This document shows positions 1 through 5,480 of a stretch of DNA of 5,480 nt, piece after piece. Position numbers and translations under genes: made by a program. The DNA lies in contig JASIGS010000116.1 in the NCBI GenBank assembly GCA_030052355.1, positions 1 through 5,480 on the forward strand, in the 5' to 3' direction. Below the pieces are notes generated by a model. That model was not told where the DNA came from, made no database searches, and was given only the letters and a program-made list of their open reading frames with translations. Each line of letters opens with the position of its first letter. Position 1 is the stretch's first letter. The DNA is from Streptosporangiaceae bacterium. GTDB lineage: Bacteria; Actinomycetota; Actinomycetes; Streptosporangiales; Streptosporangiaceae.

Positions 1-1190
1 GCGCGCTTGGCCCGGCGGAACTCGGTGCGGCGGCGCACCACCTCGATCCTGTGGTCGACGTAGATCTGCAGGAGCTCACGAAGGCCGAGGACCTTGGGCC
101 GGTCGTCTACCAGTGCCACGTTGTTGATGCCAAAGCTTTCCTCGAGCGGAGTCAGCCGGTACAGCTCCTCGAGCACGGCCTCGGGCACGAAGCCCGACCG
201 GATCTCGATGACCAGCCGCAGTCCGCTGTGCCGGTCGGTCAGGTCCTTGCAATCGGCGACGCCGTTCAGCTTCCGTGACTCGATGAGGTCGTTGATCCGC
301 AGCCTGACCCGCTCCGGGCCGACCCCGTAGGGCAGCTCGGTGACGACGATGCCGTTCCGCCGCGGCGTGAGCTTCTCGACCCGGGCGGTGGCCCTGGTAC
401 GGAAGATGCCGCGGCCCGTCTCGTAGGCCTCCCTGACGCCCTCCAGGCCGACGATCTTGCCACCGGTCGGCAGGTCCGGGCCCGGCACGAACCGCATCAG
501 TGTCTCCAGGTCGGCGTCCGGGTTCGCGATCAGATACCGGGCCGCCGCGACGACCTCGCCGAGGTTGTGCGGCGCCATGTTGGTCGCCATGCCGACAGCG
601 ATCCCCGTTGCGCCGTTGACCAGCAGGTTCGGGAACGCGGCTGGCAGCACGTCGGGCTGAGTCTCGGTGCCGTCGTAGTTGGGGATGAAGTCGACGGCGT
701 CCTCGTCGAGCGAGGCGATCATCTCCATCGCCGGCGCGGCCAGCCGGGCTTCGGTGTAGCGCATCGCCGCCGGCGGGTCCTCGGCCGTGCCGAAGTTGCC
801 GTGACCGTCGATCAGCGGCAGCCGCATGGCCCAGGGCTGCGCCATCCGCACCAGCGCGTCGTAGATGGCGCTGTCGCCGTGCGGGTGCAGGCGGCCCATC
901 ACGTCGCCGACCACGCGCGCGGACTTGACGTGCGCCCGGTCGGGCCGCAGCCCCATCTCGCCCATCTGGTACAGGATCCGGCGCTGGACCGGCTTCAGCC
1001 CGTCCCTGGCATCGGGCAGCGCCCGCTGGTAGATCACCGAGTACGCGTACTCCAGGTAGCTGGCGCGCATCTCGTCGGTGACGTCGATGTCGACGATGTT
1101 CTCCTCGAACTCGTCGTCGGTGCCGTCACCGCTGCCTGGTCCACTGCCGCGGCCGCCCCGGCCCGTCGTTGTCGCGGTACGTCTTGCCAT
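1..1190 (-). CDS. parC: DNA topoisomerase IV / gyrase-type subunit A, N-terminal half (partial)
   Basis: This is the DNA-cleaving and religating A subunit of a type IIA topoisomerase, which works with a GyrB/ParE ATPase subunit to unlink or supercoil DNA. About 396 residues are visible; the family is usually about 800 or more, so the C-terminal part lies beyond the left edge. Reading from M1 at 1190, the winged-helix region contains [17 protein letters not shown] (residues 102-118). [10 protein letters not shown] follows, with the catalytic tyrosine at residue 145, then the tower-type sequence [23 protein letters not shown]. The GyrA Ser83/Asp87 quinolone positions are Ser107 and Asp111, the unmutated type. 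The MARR start and DFEE-like acidic leader resemble Streptomyces ParC more than GyrA, so I prefer parC, but gyrA cannot be fully excluded. An in-frame ATG at 1199 is an alternative start; neither has a strong ribosome binding site. The acetyltransferase gene lies 57 bases upstream on the same strand and may share its transcript. Confidence 0.93.
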
Positions 1191-1221
1191 GCCCGCCATT
1201 GTGCCGCGCCGCCCCGTCGTC

Positions 1222-1968: not shown

Positions 1969-2565
1969 ATGATTATCACGGTCGCTTTCGTCGTCGTGGC
2001 GGCGTTGCTGTGCGTGGCGGCGCTCATGCTGATGCTCGGCACCGCGAACGTGTACTTGTCAGGCCCGGCGGCGATCGAGCACGACGGCCTCGCCCGGGGC
2101 AGGCCGGCACCGCGCTGGTCGTTGCCTGATTCCGCGGGCGCGGTGCACACGTCACCGCCGGCCAGGCCGCTCCAGCTTGTTGTCTTCGCTGACCACTCGC
2201 TGAAGTCGTTCCCCTCGGTGGTGGACGGCCTGCGCGAGCTGATCGCCAGCGATCCTGACCTGGAGATCGTGGTCTTGCTGCGCACGCGGAGCGACCTCGC
2301 GGGCCCGATGCTGGAAATGATCGGGCTCGGCGACGTGCCGGTGCTGACCGGCTCACCGGCCCTGTACGCGGGTTACAACGTTCGGGTCGGGCCGTTCGCG
2401 ATCTTCGTCGACTCGGCGGGCCTGGCGCGGGCTTCCAGCCTCGTCAACCACGACTGGCAGGTGGCCAAGCTGCGACAGCTCGCCGGCCTCGACATCTCGG
2501 CGGATGAGCTGGCAGGCGCGGGCCGGCGACGGCCGGGGCGCGGGCTGGCCCGGATGGCTGGGTAG
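1969..2565 (+). CDS. Membrane-anchored thioredoxin-fold (MauD/TlpA-like) protein lacking the CXXC site
   Basis: A 198-residue protein with one N-terminal transmembrane anchor (residues 2-23) and an extracytoplasmic thioredoxin-like domain. The segment GRPAPRWSLPDSAG (44-57) is the usual entry to TlpA/MauD domains, LQLVVFAD (68-75) is the strand before the active site, and RVGPFAIFVDSAG (139-151) matches the strand after the cis-proline, with Gly-Pro at 141-142. The active-site position reads LKSF (78-81) where the downstream paralogue has CPSC, so both redox cysteines are gone. The only cysteine is in the membrane anchor. It therefore cannot act as an ordinary thiol oxidoreductase; a binding, chaperone or heterodimer role with the second thioredoxin-fold protein is an inference. 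It is the first gene of the cluster, with GGTGAG eight bases before the ATG. The stop is four bases before the MauE-like start, so the genes are probably translationally coupled. The tail from 180 is Arg/Gly rich and looks disordered. Confidence 0.8.
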   Translation: MIITVAFVVVAALLCVAALMLMLGTANVYLSGPAAIEHDGLARGRPAPRWSLPDSAGAVHTSPPARPLQLVVFADHSLKSFPSVVDGLRELIASDPDLEIVVLLRTRSDLAGPMLEMIGLGDVPVLTGSPALYAGYNVRVGPFAIFVDSAGLARASSLVNHDWQVAKLRQLAGLDISADELAGAGRRRPGRGLARMAG

Positions 2566-2569
2566 CGGC

Positions 2570-3124
2570 ATGTCGGCGGCGATACTGGGGGCCAAGGCGC
2601 TGCTCGCCGTCATGCTGGTCGTCGCCGGCGCGGCAAAGCTGGCCGACCTCAGCGGGTTCGCCGGGACCGTGCGACTGTTCTTGCCGCCGGCCGTCGCCGC
2701 GCGACCGTGGTCGGCAGGGGCTGCCGGGCGGACCGCGGCAGCCGTGGCGGGCGGCGAGCTGCTGCTCGGTGCGGCGAGCCTGAGCTCGCCGGGAGTGGCC
2801 TGGCTGAACGCCGCGGTGCTCGGTCTCGCGTGCTCGTTCGTGGTGGCGTCCGGCGTCGGCTACGCGTTCCACCGCGGCCGGTCCTGCCGCTGCTTCGGCG
2901 CCTTGTCGCAGCGCCGGTTCGACCTGGCCGGCATCGGCCGGTCCGTGGTGATCGCGGGAATGGCCGCCGTCGCCGTCCTCGCCGTGCCCGGCTCACTCAC
3001 CCGGCTCACGCTGGCCGACCGCGGGCTGCTCCTTTGCGCCGCGGCTCTGCTTGCCTGCCTCGCCTTCACCGCCGCCAGGTGCCTGGCAGCCATCAGGCAG
3101 CCGATGGCCGGGGGGATGTCGTGA
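2570..3124 (+). CDS. mauE: MauE/DoxX-family redox-associated membrane protein
   Basis: A 184-residue integral membrane protein with about four to five hydrophobic segments (approximately residues 4-24, 55-72, 77-100, 125-145, 150-172). The start of the first helix with GAAKL (20-24) and the GGELLLG segment (61-67) are typical of the MauE/DoxX superfamily. RSCRCFGAL (105-112) contains the C-x-C-F-G signature seen in MauE-type proteins (Cys106, Cys108). In methylotrophs MauE works with MauD to form the disulfide-rich methylamine dehydrogenase light chain, probably passing electrons or oxidising equivalents across the membrane. Placement between two thioredoxin-fold genes fits that partnership. 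The ATG at 2570 was chosen because it begins the first membrane helix and follows the previous stop by four bases; an upstream in-frame start at 2504 would add a non-membrane extension overlapping the previous gene. Its stop overlaps the next GTG as GTGA. Confidence 0.85.
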   Translation: MSAAILGAKALLAVMLVVAGAAKLADLSGFAGTVRLFLPPAVAARPWSAGAAGRTAAAVAGGELLLGAASLSSPGVAWLNAAVLGLACSFVVASGVGYAFHRGRSCRCFGALSQRRFDLAGIGRSVVIAGMAAVAVLAVPGSLTRLTLADRGLLLCAAALLACLAFTAARCLAAIRQPMAGGMS

Positions 3125-3732
3125 TCCGCATTCCGCTGTACCTGGCCGTCGCGCAGTGGGCGCTGCTGCTGTGCCTGGCTGTGCTGCTCATCGCTGCCTA
3201 CCGGCAGCTCGGCCGCGTCCTCGGCCAGTCCCGGACGCCGCCGGAGCTTGGCCCGCGGACGGGAGCCAGGGCCGGCCGCATCGGCTACGAGCCGCTCTCT
3301 CCGGCGGGCGGTATCGATGGCGGCGACGGCCAGCGCGGCCGCGTGCCGCGCACGTTCGTGCCCGGCGGCGGGCCCGCCCTTGTCGCGTTCGTGGACCCGA
3401 CGTGCCCGTCCTGCGAGGAACTGGTGGCCGCGCTTGGCCGCGCCCGCGAGGCCGGCGAGCTCGACCGGGTCCGGGTGCTCCTGCTGACCACGGACCCGCC
3501 CCGGTACCTGCAGATCTCGCCGGTCTTCCGGGCCACGGCCCTGGAGATCGGGCGCCCGCTTGACGATGCCGAGCTTGAGCCCTACCGGCCGTCGGCCACG
3601 CCGCTGGTGGTGGCGATCGACGCGTCGGGCATCGTGCGCGCGGCGGGTAGCGGCGCCCGGCCGCACGAGGTGCGCGCGATGATCGCGGCCAGCCTGCTGC
3701 CGCCGCCGGCCGAACTGCTGCCGGTCGTCTAG
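3121..3732 (+). CDS. mauD: Membrane-anchored thioredoxin-fold oxidoreductase (MauD/TlpA-like) with CPSC active site
   Basis: A 203-residue protein with an N-terminal membrane anchor (residues 5-26) and a thioredoxin-like domain on the outer side. The strand ALVAFVDPT (86-94) leads into CPSC (95-98), the redox-active CXXC at the start of the first domain helix. VRVLLLTTD (117-125) is the next core strand, and SATPLVVAIDASGIV (158-172) holds the cis-Pro (Thr160-Pro161) and the following hairpin. This is the arrangement of MauD, which is required for disulfide formation in the methylamine dehydrogenase light chain. Here the likely clients are the cysteine-rich Tat protein encoded next and the MauE-like partner before it. 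The GTG start at 3121 overlaps the preceding stop (GTGA), a classical coupled start; an open frame extends upstream to 2707, but that part lies on the mauE-like gene and is not coding. The segment 40-80 is a flexible Gly/Arg-rich linker. The symbol reflects family resemblance, not proven function. Confidence 0.82.
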   Translation: MIRIPLYLAVAQWALLLCLAVLLIAAYRQLGRVLGQSRTPPELGPRTGARAGRIGYEPLSPAGGIDGGDGQRGRVPRTFVPGGGPALVAFVDPTCPSCEELVAALGRAREAGELDRVRVLLLTTDPPRYLQISPVFRATALEIGRPLDDAELEPYRPSATPLVVAIDASGIVRAAGSGARPHEVRAMIAASLLPPPAELLPVV

Positions 3733-3773: not shown

Positions 3774-4268
3774 ATGGGGTGGACTCGCTGGGGCACCGGC
3801 TTGGACGCGCGGATCGGCGACATGGCCGAGCGCGCCGCGAGGAGGCTGAGCCGCCGGGACGCGATGCGCAGCGCGGTGGTGACCGGCACGGCCGGGCTAG
3901 CCTCTCTGTCGCTCGGCCGCAAGCCTTCCAGGGCGAGCACGGTGACGTGCGACTGTGGCCCGACCAAGCGCTGCTCGGGCTGCCCGGACACTGGCTGCCC
4001 CTCCGGCCAGCACATCTGCAAGGGCTCGGCCACGAGCACCTGCTTTAACAAGCAGGGCTACCGGTGCGAGTGGCCCAACGGCACCTGGATCGCCTGCATG
4101 AACATGGGCAACGGCTACGGCTACAAGGTCTGCTACGACTGCATCGGCAAGGGCGGCTGCCCGGACTGGTGTACCTGCCTGAGCGAGTGCATCTGCTGCG
4201 ATTGCCTGACAGCGGCCGACCTGAAGGCCGAGCAGCGGCGGCTCCAGGCCGCGGGCCTGCCGGGCTAG
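3774..4268 (+). CDS. Tat-exported cysteine-rich protein, methylamine dehydrogenase light-chain (MauA)-like
   Basis: A 164-residue protein with a long charged N-terminus, a twin-arginine motif SRRDAM (residues 26-31) and a short hydrophobic stretch (34-48), so it should be folded and exported by the Tat system. The mature part holds 18 cysteines between 59 and 144, an even number compatible with nine disulfides; no cysteine lies outside this block. The segment NGTWIAC, then YGYKVCYDC, GGC and WCTC (102-135) loosely recalls the MauA stretch around its first tryptophylquinone tryptophan (SWVASCY... YRDCCG... CPC). Trp100, Trp105 and Trp132 are the only tryptophans past the signal. No second Trp occupies the C-terminal place where MauA has its crosslink partner, so true tryptophan tryptophylquinone is uncertain. 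The C-terminal 20 residues form a charged helix. The genes for MauE- and MauD-like proteins just upstream support a disulfide-rich client. The Tat signal and cysteine content are certain; MauA kinship is tentative, and a metal-binding or structural protein is an alternative. Confidence 0.75.
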   Translation: MGWTRWGTGLDARIGDMAERAARRLSRRDAMRSAVVTGTAGLASLSLGRKPSRASTVTCDCGPTKRCSGCPDTGCPSGQHICKGSATSTCFNKQGYRCEWPNGTWIACMNMGNGYGYKVCYDCIGKGGCPDWCTCLSECICCDCLTAADLKAEQRRLQAAGLPG

Positions 4269-4278
4269 CGAGGCGAGC

Positions 4279-4353
4279 GTGGTGACGGCGGTCGCGGGGC
4301 TCGCGGTCGTGCTGGCGGCGGTCAACGGCTTCGGCAAGGCGTACTCCCCTTGA
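4279..4353 (+). CDS. 24-codon hydrophobic ORF, probable 5' part of the next gene before an in-frame TGA
   Basis: GTG at 4279 (or GTG 4282) opens a 24-codon frame that ends at TGA 4351-4353. The peptide is a single hydrophobic helix (TAVAGLAVVLAAVNGFG) followed by KAYSP. A GAGG site at 4270-4273 lies five bases before the start, and the gene begins ten bases after the cysteine-rich protein stop. Twenty-three of 24 third positions are G or C. The frame is the same as that of the membrane-protein gene starting at 4402, and the codons between (4354-4401) also have G or C at 15 of 16 third positions. Read through, the product would be a 221-residue protein with the TGA at residue 25, in the sequence SP-(TGA)-G. 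It may thus be the true N-terminus of the next gene with selenocysteine or a nonsense mutation at 25, or a genuine independent micro-membrane peptide. I favour the first reading. Confidence 0.5.
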   Translation: MVTAVAGLAVVLAAVNGFGKAYSP

Positions 4354-4379
4354 GGCGTCAACTCGGCGGCTTCCCTGGC

Positions 4380-4404
4380 CACCAGCCTCCCGGTCGGGAG
4401 GGTG
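4380..4404 (+). promoter_or_regulatory. GGTC-loop stem-loop downstream of the in-frame TGA
   Basis: CCTCCC (4386-4391) pairs perfectly with GGGAGG (4396-4401) around the tetraloop GGTC. CAC 4380-4382 and GTG 4402-4404 can extend it to nine pairs with a three-base bulge. The loop begins 38 bases after the TGA at 4351-4353. Bacterial SECIS elements are hairpins a few tens of bases after the UGA with G in the first loop positions, often GGU, so the loop fits, but the distance is at or just past the normal upper limit. Alternatively the stem hides the GGGAGG Shine-Dalgarno-like sequence in front of GTG 4402. A smaller hairpin, CTGG-CCA-CCAG (4375-4385), sits directly before it. Confidence 0.45.
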
Positions 4405-4944
4405 TCTCGTGTCCTCGTCGTGATCACCGCCTACGCGGTGCCGGCGATCGCTGCCTGGGCGGTGCTCGGCGCGCTGCTCGGCGCGCTGCCGCTGACCCGG
4501 CCGGCGCTGGTCCTCACGGCGGCCTACGGCCTGTGCTACGGGGCGGCCGAGGTGGCCGGCCGCCGCTGGCCGCGGTCGCCCGGCACCTCGTGGCAGGTTT
4601 CCCAGACGATGGTGATCAACACCCCGCCCTGGCGGCGGACCCTGGTCTGGGGCTCGGTTCTTGGTCCCGGCTTCGCGACCCGCAACCCGTACGCGGGGTT
4701 CGGCCTGCTGCCGCTGGCAGTCGCCAGCGCCAGCGGCGTCCGGGAGGCGGTCGCAGCGGCGGCACTAATCGGGCTCGCCCACGGCGCCGGGCGGGCGCTG
4801 GCCCTGCTGCGGGACGCCGGGCCGTCGGCCGGCGCCGATCCCATGCGGACGATGCTGGCATCCCTGCGGTGGCGCAGGCTCGACGGCGTCATCCTGCTCG
4901 TCATCGGCGGCGTGGCAGTAGTGGCCTGTGCCGCCACCTTGTGA
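4402..4944 (+). CDS. Multi-pass membrane protein of the mau-like cluster (MauF/CcdA-like function possible)
   Basis: From GTG 4402 this encodes 180 residues with about five hydrophobic segments: roughly 4-30 (VLVVITAYAVPAIAAW), 35-53, 82-112 (LVWGSVLGPGFATRNPYAG then GLLPLAVASA), 116-135 and 162-179. The G-x-G-F-A-T-R-x-P-Y pattern with aromatic and proline residues resembles actinobacterial membrane proteins found beside MauE/thioredoxin genes, and by position it could play the role of MauF or CcdA, moving reducing or oxidising equivalents for the exported protein. No cysteine pair typical of CcdA is present in this part; the cysteines are at about residues 52 and 176. The start is doubtful: GGGAGG directly abuts GTG 4402 with no spacing, and the next in-frame GTG (4420) is too far. 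The open frame continues upstream in phase to TGA 4351 and beyond it to GTG 4279, so the real gene may be 4279-4944. Membrane nature is well supported; the family assignment is from memory and weak. Confidence 0.7.
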   Translation: MSRVLVVITAYAVPAIAAWAVLGALLGALPLTRPALVLTAAYGLCYGAAEVAGRRWPRSPGTSWQVSQTMVINTPPWRRTLVWGSVLGPGFATRNPYAGFGLLPLAVASASGVREAVAAAALIGLAHGAGRALALLRDAGPSAGADPMRTMLASLRWRRLDGVILLVIGGVAVVACAATL

Positions 4945-5032: not shown

Positions 5033-5480
5033 ATGAAGAAAATCCTCGTCACCCTCATCGCCCTGGCCTGCGCCGCCGCGCTGGCCAGCGGTCTCGCGAT
5101 TACGGCTGCCCAGGCGAGCGCGGGCAGGCCGGGTCAGGCTAGCGCCAGCGACAAGGAGACGTTCGGGTTCGTCAACACGGTGGTCGGCTCGACAAAGGTC
5201 AGCACGCTGGCAATCGGCGTGTTTACCGATGGCGGCTACACCGTGCCCGGCAAGCTGAACGCGACCACCTTGCGCGCCACCGACAAGGTGGTCTTCCCGA
5301 CCGGGTCCTTCGACGTGAACGAGCACGTCACGAGCCAGTACCTGCCGGTACCCACCGCCCAGTGCCTGGTGCACGAGACCATCCGCGGCACTTACACGCT
5401 CGGCAGCGGCAGCGGGTCCTTCAAGGGCATCAGCGGGTCTGGCACGTTCCTGACCTACATGAACGGCGTACTCAGCAGCA
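5033..5480 (+). CDS. Secreted protein with signal peptide, probable beta-barrel (partial, runs off right edge)
   Basis: The first 149 residues are visible. MKK plus a hydrophobic stretch (residues 4-25) and an A-S-A cleavage site (28-30) form a classical Sec signal peptide, so the mature protein is exported. The mature part has many short alternating strands with Gly-rich turns: FGFVNTVVG, LAIGVFTDGGY, KVVFPTGSFDVNEH, a single cysteine at 111, RGTYTLGSGSGSFKGISGSGTF. The pattern GTYTLGxGxGxFKGIxGxG recurs in small secreted actinobacterial proteins of uncharacterised function that resemble allene-oxide-cyclase or lipocalin-like barrels. I recognise the pattern but not a named family. The GGGAG site five bases upstream fixes the start. 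It lies 88 bases after the membrane-protein gene in the same direction; whether it belongs to the mau-like operon is open. Confidence 0.8.
   Translation, partial: MKKILVTLIALACAAALASGLAITAAQASAGRPGQASASDKETFGFVNTVVGSTKVSTLAIGVFTDGGYTVPGKLNATTLRATDKVVFPTGSFDVNEHVTSQYLPVPTAQCLVHETIRGTYTLGSGSGSFKGISGSGTFLTYMNGVLSS

What the first reader, a model, noticed from the sequence alone, without database searches (positions are those of the whole stretch)
4279..4944. In-frame TGA inside a membrane-protein gene: candidate selenocysteine or nonsense mutation
The frame GTG 4279 to TGA 4944 is broken only at TGA 4351-4353. GC at third positions is 23/24 before and 15/16 between the TGA and GTG 4402, so the segment before GTG 4402 behaves as coding in this frame; the other two frames do not. 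GTG 4402 has a Shine-Dalgarno-like sequence with zero spacing, so it is a poor independent start. From memory, related actinobacterial membrane proteins beside thioredoxin/MauE genes carry SPCG after the first helix; here the codon is TGA instead of a Cys codon. A selenoprotein in a redox cassette would be new to my knowledge. The mundane options are a TGC to TGA mutation, a sequencing error, or two separate genes.
Basis: partly seen in the sequence, partly recalled or inferred. Interest (0 to 1): 0.75.

Follow-up and report, generated by a model that had tools for sequence, protein, structure and literature searches.

The report
Hidden selenoprotein in a redox operon
The in-frame stop codon is very probably read as selenocysteine: many actinobacterial relatives keep the same codon with an RNA hairpin behind it, and gene catalogues have cut the protein short at that point.

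Summary
The TGA at 4351-4353 is real and conserved. DNA of relatives has TGA at the same SP[TGA]G site in 13 of 13 family genomes whose match spans it, and in 48 of 55 readable genomes of a phylum-wide sample; the other 7 have TGC. selA is present in 46 of those 48 and in 0 of the 7; tRNA-Sec of at least 55 bits in 44 of 48 and 0 of 7. A hairpin with a GGUC loop follows the TGA (4386-4401); related subfamilies keep hairpins there through compensatory changes. Rare Arg codons that the stem needs stand there in 13 of 13 genes, against 11 of 89 nearby Arg codons. Of 240 listed catalogue homologues 238 start downstream of the site.

Best reading: an undescribed selenoprotein family, a membrane protein distantly like DsbD/CcdA, in a mau-like operon. 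No NCBIfam 20 model matched it, and the table of 119 families in a 2026 review does not list it. Sec insertion is inferred from comparative genomics, not shown biochemically; the function, a membrane selenol relay, is a hypothesis. The window's own genome is not held.

The parts
4279..4350 (+). 5' part of the gene: start GTG 4279 and 24 codons, first predicted helix, ending ...NGFGKAYSP
   Evidence: translation; conserved in A1; helix 2-22 in the model; GC3 23/24
4351..4353 (+). TGA codon read as selenocysteine (residue 25)
   Evidence: TGA at this site in 62 of 69 sites read (window included), TGC in 7; association with selA and tRNA-Sec
4354..4944 (+). rest of the membrane protein and its real stop (TGA 4942-4944); gene callers report part of this stretch
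4386..4401 (+). distal hairpin CCTCCC-GGTC-GGGAGG, loop 4392-4395, 38 nt after the TGA; proposed bacterial SECIS
4365..4383 (+). proximal hairpin (4365-4370 with 4378-4383), weaker; a proximal hairpin is also present in related subfamilies
4270..4273 (+). GAGG, ribosome-binding-like sequence 5 nt before GTG 4279
   Evidence: sequence
3774..4268 (+). Cys-rich exported-looking protein, MauA-like by gene order and Cys/Trp pattern (my reading)
   Evidence: MADH light chain only at chance level, E 0.61
3121..3732 (+). MauD-like thioredoxin-fold protein with CPSC
   Evidence: TIGR02661 E 6.5e-6, far below cut-off; CP[SA]C in 7 of 7 relatives read
2570..3124 (+). MauE membrane protein
   Evidence: PF07291, 41.8 bits, cut-off 27
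1969..2565 (+). TlpA/thioredoxin-like protein of the cassette, without CxxC
   Evidence: no Pfam or NCBIfam hit, so the name is my reading

Best explanation
The gene 4279-4944 encodes a selenoprotein. SelB with tRNA-Sec reads UGA 4351-4353 as selenocysteine, guided by the hairpin just downstream. The product is a membrane protein of about 221 residues, distantly related to the DsbD/CcdA transmembrane family. Its single conserved redox residue, Sec, sits at the break between helix 1 and helix 2 (SPUG). It most likely passes electrons (thiol/selenol exchange) across or at the membrane to the co-encoded MauD-like and MauE proteins, which keep or mature the disulfide-rich MauA-like exported protein. 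Shown by comparison: codon conservation, Sec/Cys exchange, hairpin conservation, Sec machinery in relatives, operon conservation in the window's family. Inferred: Sec in the protein. Hypothesis (about 0.45): the relay function.
For: TGA at the site in 13 of 13 family-level matches that span it and 48 of 55 readable phylum-level matches, TGC in 7. selA in 46/48 TGA and 0/7 TGC genomes, Fisher p 1.8e-7; 231 of 396 genomes of that sample have selA. tRNA-Sec of 55 bits or more in 44/48 and 0/7; at Rfam's own cut-off of 47 bits 45/48 and 2/7. Hairpins in 27 genes of two subfamilies: 95.2% of cells paired, covariation 0.292 against 0.081 in shuffles, 37 cells changed on both sides against 11.8; in the window's subfamily, 13 genes: 90.1% paired, 0.229 against 0.119. 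AGG/AGA in 13/13 against 11/89 nearby Arg codons; GTC for Val in 13/13. GGTC flanked by complementary bases also follows the Sec codon of formate dehydrogenase in two carriers. 238 of 240 listed catalogue homologues start downstream of the site. Cassette in 12 of 13 carrier loci.
Against: Three of 13 family carriers show no tRNA-Sec at E<=1e-10, and one of them, G118, shows neither selA nor a selB over the cut-off; completeness is not given. In the phylum sample 2 of 48 TGA genomes lack selA and one of these (G497) lacks tRNA-Sec too. Two of 7 Cys genomes have a tRNA hit near 50 bits, over Rfam's cut-off; I take these for other tRNAs, and the 55-bit line was drawn after seeing the scores. The loop lies 38 nt behind the TGA in the window, just outside the usual 16-37 nt (PMC13188914, section 5). 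Folding energy does not set Sec genes apart (mean z -0.39 against 0.03); only 24 of 62 single hairpins beat a synonymous-codon null at 0.05, and L157 and L162 gave none. Some covariation measures do not exceed shuffles (further pair types; pairs changed on both sides, 43 of 500), and A7 has no variation to judge. The folds computed for the two formate dehydrogenase segments did not choose the GGUC hairpin. One metagenome protein, P0035, has Trp at the site. No protein or selenium data. Fold searches gave no clear match.
Confidence: 0.9

Rival explanations
1. Nonsense mutation or sequencing error in one gene: the TGA was TGC and the protein is broken or misread.
For: TGA is one change from TGC; the window's reads cannot be seen.
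Against: The same codon is TGA in 62 of 69 sites read, in different genomes, with conservation on both sides.
Confidence: 0.02
2. Two separate genes: a 24-residue leader peptide or small protein, then a protein starting at GTG 4402 or nearby.
For: Catalogues list the homologues that way; GTG 4402 follows GGGAGG.
Against: The codons between TGA and GTG 4402 keep a GxNSAxSLAxxLPVGR-like stretch though they would be untranslated; Cys homologues are one open frame across the site; GGGAGG is a hairpin arm. In the Egicoccus type the reported ATG lies only 9 nt behind the TGA.
Confidence: 0.03
3. UGA is decoded as another residue: Trp by near-cognate readthrough, or Cys by a minor tRNA that uses SelB.
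For: P0035 has Trp; tRNA-Sec-like tRNAs charged with Cys have been described (recalled, not looked up); three family carriers lack detectable tRNA-Sec.
Against: Where a sense codon is seen in DNA it is TGC in 7 of 7, and no selA was found in those genomes; TGA genomes have selA in 46 of 48, and SelA makes Sec on tRNA-Sec.
Confidence: 0.05

Closest known systems
DsbD/CcdA transmembrane family (Pfam DsbD_2 PF13386, DsbD_TM PF02683)
   Same: 32 of 45 Egicoccus-type members scanned hit DsbD_2 and 16 of 45 hit DsbD_TM at E<=0.01; SPC/SPU at the break after helix 1; two similar halves in the model (my reading)
   Different: No hit for the window protein even at E<=5; of its 14-row alignment one member hits MauE (E 0.022) and none DsbD; there is one invariant redox residue, Sec, and no invariant Cys elsewhere
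mau (methylamine dehydrogenase) maturation genes mauE, mauD, mauA
   Same: MauE over the Pfam cut-off in the window and in Egicoccus; MauD-like and Cys-rich MauA-like genes in the same order in 12 of 13 loci; MauD at E 8.1e-29 beside a third subfamily, L193
   Different: MauD scores stay below the NCBIfam cut-off (25.7, 22.7 and 100.4 of 188.6 bits); no Pfam light-chain hit and MADH light chain only at chance level; no heavy chain recognised in the window; MauF, which I recall from mau clusters, was not compared
TsoB, rhodanese/DsbD fusion-like selenoprotein (NF045694), and TsoY (NF047643)
   Same: TsoB is a selenoprotein with a DsbD-like part (table of PMC13188914)
   Different: Sec motif UxxxxU (TsoB) and UxxV (TsoY) against SPUG here; no NCBIfam hit for the window protein at E<=1 or for six relatives at E<=0.1
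Selenocysteine formate dehydrogenase
   Same: In-frame TGA followed by GGTC between complementary bases in two of the same genomes (by eye)
   Different: Unrelated protein; GGTC 18 nt behind the TGA instead of 38; no FDH match at E<=1e-60 in 6 of 13 carriers

Membership tests
Bacterial selenoprotein | In-frame UGA conserved at one site across species | tested here: met
   62 of 69 sites TGA, 7 TGC
Bacterial selenoprotein | Cys homologues at the same position | tested here: met
   7 TGC loci and P0240; hhalign puts residue 25 on residue 25 between subfamilies. In the window's own subfamily no Cys homologue was found
Bacterial selenoprotein | bSECIS hairpin behind UGA with G in the first two loop positions, spacing 16-37 nt | tested here: met
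Bacterial selenoprotein | selA, selB and tRNA-Sec in the genome | tested here: met
   relatives only; not in every draft; the window's own genome is not held
Bacterial selenoprotein | Selenium in the protein | not testable with these tools
   needs 75Se labelling or mass spectrometry
DsbD/CcdA family | Match to the Pfam models over the cut-off | tested here: inconclusive
   window protein: none; relatives: 24.6 of 24.9 bits for P0131, 32 of 45 at E<=0.01
DsbD/CcdA family | Pair of Cys in TM1 and TM4 (recalled) | tested here: not met
   residue 25 is the only invariant Sec/Cys column in A1
DsbD/CcdA family | Fold | tested here: inconclusive
Methylamine dehydrogenase (mau) cluster | MauE | tested here: met
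Methylamine dehydrogenase (mau) cluster | MauD over its NCBIfam cut-off | tested here: not met
   25.7 of 188.6 bits in the window; 22.7 and 100.4 in L100 and L193
Methylamine dehydrogenase (mau) cluster | MauA light chain with TTQ tryptophans | tested here: inconclusive
   one invariant Trp in A5; 3c75_L at E 0.61 over 9-135, below other chance hits; no Pfam light-chain hit; in L193 the light-chain model hits only the leader, E 0.077

The most novel reading that the evidence does not exclude
A large selenoprotein family of Actinomycetota has been overlooked because gene callers start it behind its Sec codon. It is a one-selenol membrane electron relay of a mau-like pathway that matures a Cys-rich exported protein, possibly one with a Trp-derived cofactor. 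In lineages without formate dehydrogenase it may be a main reason to keep selenocysteine.
Probability: 0.35. Interest if true: 0.88.

Novelty: new variant of a known kind. Interest (0 to 1): 0.8.

Why it matters
It would add a widespread family to the bacterial selenoproteome and correct the N-termini of many catalogued membrane proteins: 277 and 325 hits, of which 240 were listed and 238 start downstream of the site. It links selenium to mau-like redox operons in Actinomycetota. It gives a named species as test case, Egicoccus halophilus (P0121, G348), and a natural Sec/Cys comparison that tracks the Sec machinery.

Tried and rejected
Nonsense mutation, sequencing error and two-gene readings were considered and rejected (see rivals). 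General folding energy against a synonymous-codon null did not separate Sec from Cys genes and is not used as support; the window segment alone folds hardly better than shuffles (z -0.56). Rfam found no SECIS family in the window (one hit below its cut-off, E 0.99, elsewhere). PDB searches by fold and by profile found no convincing relative; DsbD or CcdA structures are not among the rows shown, which does not exclude them. A hairpin count on alignment A7 was uninformative because its pairs hardly vary. A plasmid tblastn with the Egicoccus protein found nothing. A hit in G189 (E 4.9e-4, 3 TAG, not spanning the site) was dropped as spurious. L025, whose hairpin is CCCCTC-CGGGA-GAGGGG, was left out of alignment A4. 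Six of the 61 phylum genomes with a match were not counted: one is masked at the site, one match starts at a contig edge, and four had no readable site or were not fetched there. Outside the window's family the cassette was seen only in part by tblastn: MauE and MauD-like beside the gene in L190, L191 and L200, MauD-like in L192, L193 and L195 (weak in the last two), none in L194, L196, L197, L198, L199 and L201.

Literature: paper searches showed no report of this family in the rows listed (searches had more matches than rows). Of PMC13188914 I saw the abstract, passages, section 5, and parts 1 and 2 of 3 of section 7 with the table. Of PMC12013277 I saw the search listing and a term search without hits. 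The other papers were seen as listings only. Haft and Tolstoy 2025 (PMC12013261) is not held, so I cannot exclude that it mentions this family.

Full report
Observation. GTG 4279 follows GAGG by 5 nt, and 10 nt separate it from the stop of the preceding gene.

Catalogue homologues. A search of 5.8 billion proteins with the read-through protein gave 277 hits at E<=1e-3, 120 listed. Of these 120, only P0035 spans the site, with Trp there; 11 start at 'VNSA/MNSA/NSA' directly behind it and the rest further downstream. A search with residues 1-50 of a relative again found only P0035 among 3446 candidates. So the databases show almost only truncated forms, and the reason had to be read from DNA.

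DNA of relatives. Four named loci from the genome scan all have TGA at the site: a Streptosporangiaceae bacterium, an Actinomycetota bacterium, an Actinobacteria bacterium and a Streptosporangiales bacterium, all metagenome-assembled. They lie in genomes G001-G004 and are counted once below. Of 297 family genomes, 14 matched; 13 matches span the site and each has exactly one stop, TGA, at SP[TGA]G (12) or AP[TGA]G (1), at 37 to 80% identity to the window. The fourteenth, in G189, is spurious. The alignment keeps residues on both sides of the site, including the GxNSAxSLAxxLPVGR-like stretch between the TGA and GTG 4402; L025 departs from it in the last part.

A wider family. A profile search of 396 genomes of the phylum found a distant relative in G348, with one TGA. 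The catalogue protein from it, P0121, is Egicoccus halophilus, class Nitriliruptoria. Of its 120 listed homologues 119 start just behind the site and one, P0240, has SPCG. hhalign relates the two subfamilies at 96.6% with residue 25 on residue 25. A second profile search, of 396 phylum genomes drawn around G348, matched 61. I read the site in 55 of these: TGA in 48, TGC in 7. Six were not readable. On a tree of 69 proteins the Cys forms need at least two changes.

Machinery. selA was searched with the same draw (same handles): 231 of 396 genomes have it; 46 of the 48 TGA genomes (not G497, G539) and 0 of the 7 TGC genomes (G431, G671, G679, G352, G662, G375, G311) (Fisher p 1.8e-7). tRNA-Sec of at least 55 bits is in 44 of the 48 (not G314, G454, G497, G446) and in 0 of the 7. 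At Rfam's cut-off of 47 bits it is 45 and 2, the two (G352, G375) near 50 bits. I take those for other tRNAs: in that search three well-known genomes beyond E. coli and M. jannaschii also rang. In the window's own family the 13 carriers have selA at E<1e-40 in 11, tRNA-Sec at E<=1e-10 in 10 and selB over the cut-off in 9. The nearest relative, G001, has selA, selB and tRNA-Sec on one contig, C488. G118 lacks all three, though its close relative G154 has a selA match. Completeness of these drafts is not given. selA alone does not mark carriers in the family, since 173 of 297 genomes have it over the cut-off.

RNA signal. In the window's subfamily the codons of LPVGR form CTCCC-GGTC-GGGAG, loop 38 nt behind the TGA. 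Over 13 genes the Val codon is GTC in 13 and the Arg codon AGG or AGA in 13, although only 11 of 89 other nearby Arg codons in these genes are AGG or AGA. L024 changes both sides of one pair, and pairs 36-51 and 35-52 also change on both sides in some genes. Other subfamilies encode other residues there but keep hairpins: GGTC loops at 29 nt in 17 of the 48 phylum genes, and three-base loops at 33 nt in 22 of the other 31. For 27 genes of two subfamilies that share this second geometry, 95.2% of cells pair, 37 cells changed on both sides against 11.8 in shuffles, and sliding the partner by one to three columns destroys it. Shuffles do not keep relatedness, so the sliding control and the exchange between subfamilies are the stronger part. 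A proximal hairpin is also kept. The Sec codon of formate dehydrogenase in G062 and G004 is followed, 18 nt on, by GGTC between CGCC or CGTC and TGGCG; that hairpin is my reading by eye, and the computed folds chose other pairings. Against the signal: overall folding energy is not informative, single-gene tests pass 0.05 in 24 of 62 Sec genes and 0 of 7 Cys genes, two Sec genes show no such hairpin, and the window's spacing is one beyond the usual range given in PMC13188914.

What the protein is. No NCBIfam hit and no Pfam hit for the window protein; single members of its alignment hit RcnB (0.014) and MauE (0.022) weakly. Egicoccus-type members hit DsbD_2 in 32 of 45 and DsbD_TM in 16 of 45 at E<=0.01. 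The predicted structure (pLDDT 87.7) has eight helix segments, which I read as two halves, each with a broken first helix; the Sec is at the first break. Solved structures gave no clear match. There is no invariant Cys besides the Sec column, so no obvious partner thiol within the protein.

Operon. In 12 of 13 carrier loci of the window's family the gene follows the same four genes: TlpA-like, MauE, MauD-like (CP[SA]C in the 7 read), and a Cys-rich MauA-like protein (the exception is L185). Beside the Egicoccus gene lie a MauE (44.8 bits, cut-off 27) and a weak MauD. L193, of another subfamily, has a MauD (E 8.1e-29, below the cut-off) and a Cys-rich protein whose leader alone touches the MADH small-subunit model at E 0.077. 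In six of the eight loci of more distant members examined, tblastn found no MauE or MauD, though that test is weak at such distance. The MauA-like profile aligns to methylamine dehydrogenase light chain over most of its length, but only at E 0.61. I therefore propose that the selenoprotein serves as a CcdA/MauF-like relay in a mau-like maturation set; this is inference, and MauF is recalled.

Known or new. The table of 119 selenoprotein families in PMC13188914 does not list a family with SPUG, MauE or CcdA context; TsoB is its only entry named after DsbD. Ten literature searches showed nothing (listed in Tried and rejected). Haft and Tolstoy 2025 could not be read. I call it a new variant of a known kind: a new selenoprotein family, and a Sec form of a DsbD-like membrane protein.

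Noticed in passing
1969-2565: The first thioredoxin-like protein of the cassette has no CxxC; DHSLK stands at that place in the window, L001 and L183; other loci were not read there.
   Followed up: partly
3774-4268: Cys-rich protein with a twin-arginine-like start (RRLSRRDAMR) and one invariant Trp in GxWxxC; could carry a Trp-derived cofactor or be a structural Cys-rich protein.
   Followed up: partly
5033-5480: Exported-looking protein behind the cassette, with a relative near the same place in 6 of 13 carrier loci; no family over a cut-off.
   Followed up: no
L168, L172 (loci of G397, G337): Very divergent members with STG[TGA]GTSMN / SSG[TGA]GLSMN, still with a GGTC-loop hairpin 32 nt behind the TGA.
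   Followed up: partly
   Followed up: no
genomes G002, G003, G022, G027, G080, G095: Six of 13 carriers show no formate dehydrogenase match at E<=1e-60, although tRNA-Sec is present in all six.
   Followed up: partly
1-1199, minus strand: Gene that reads like a DNA gyrase/topoisomerase IV A subunit (my reading), running off the window; 1248-1838 minus is a GNAT acetyltransferase. Neither belongs to the cassette.
   Followed up: no
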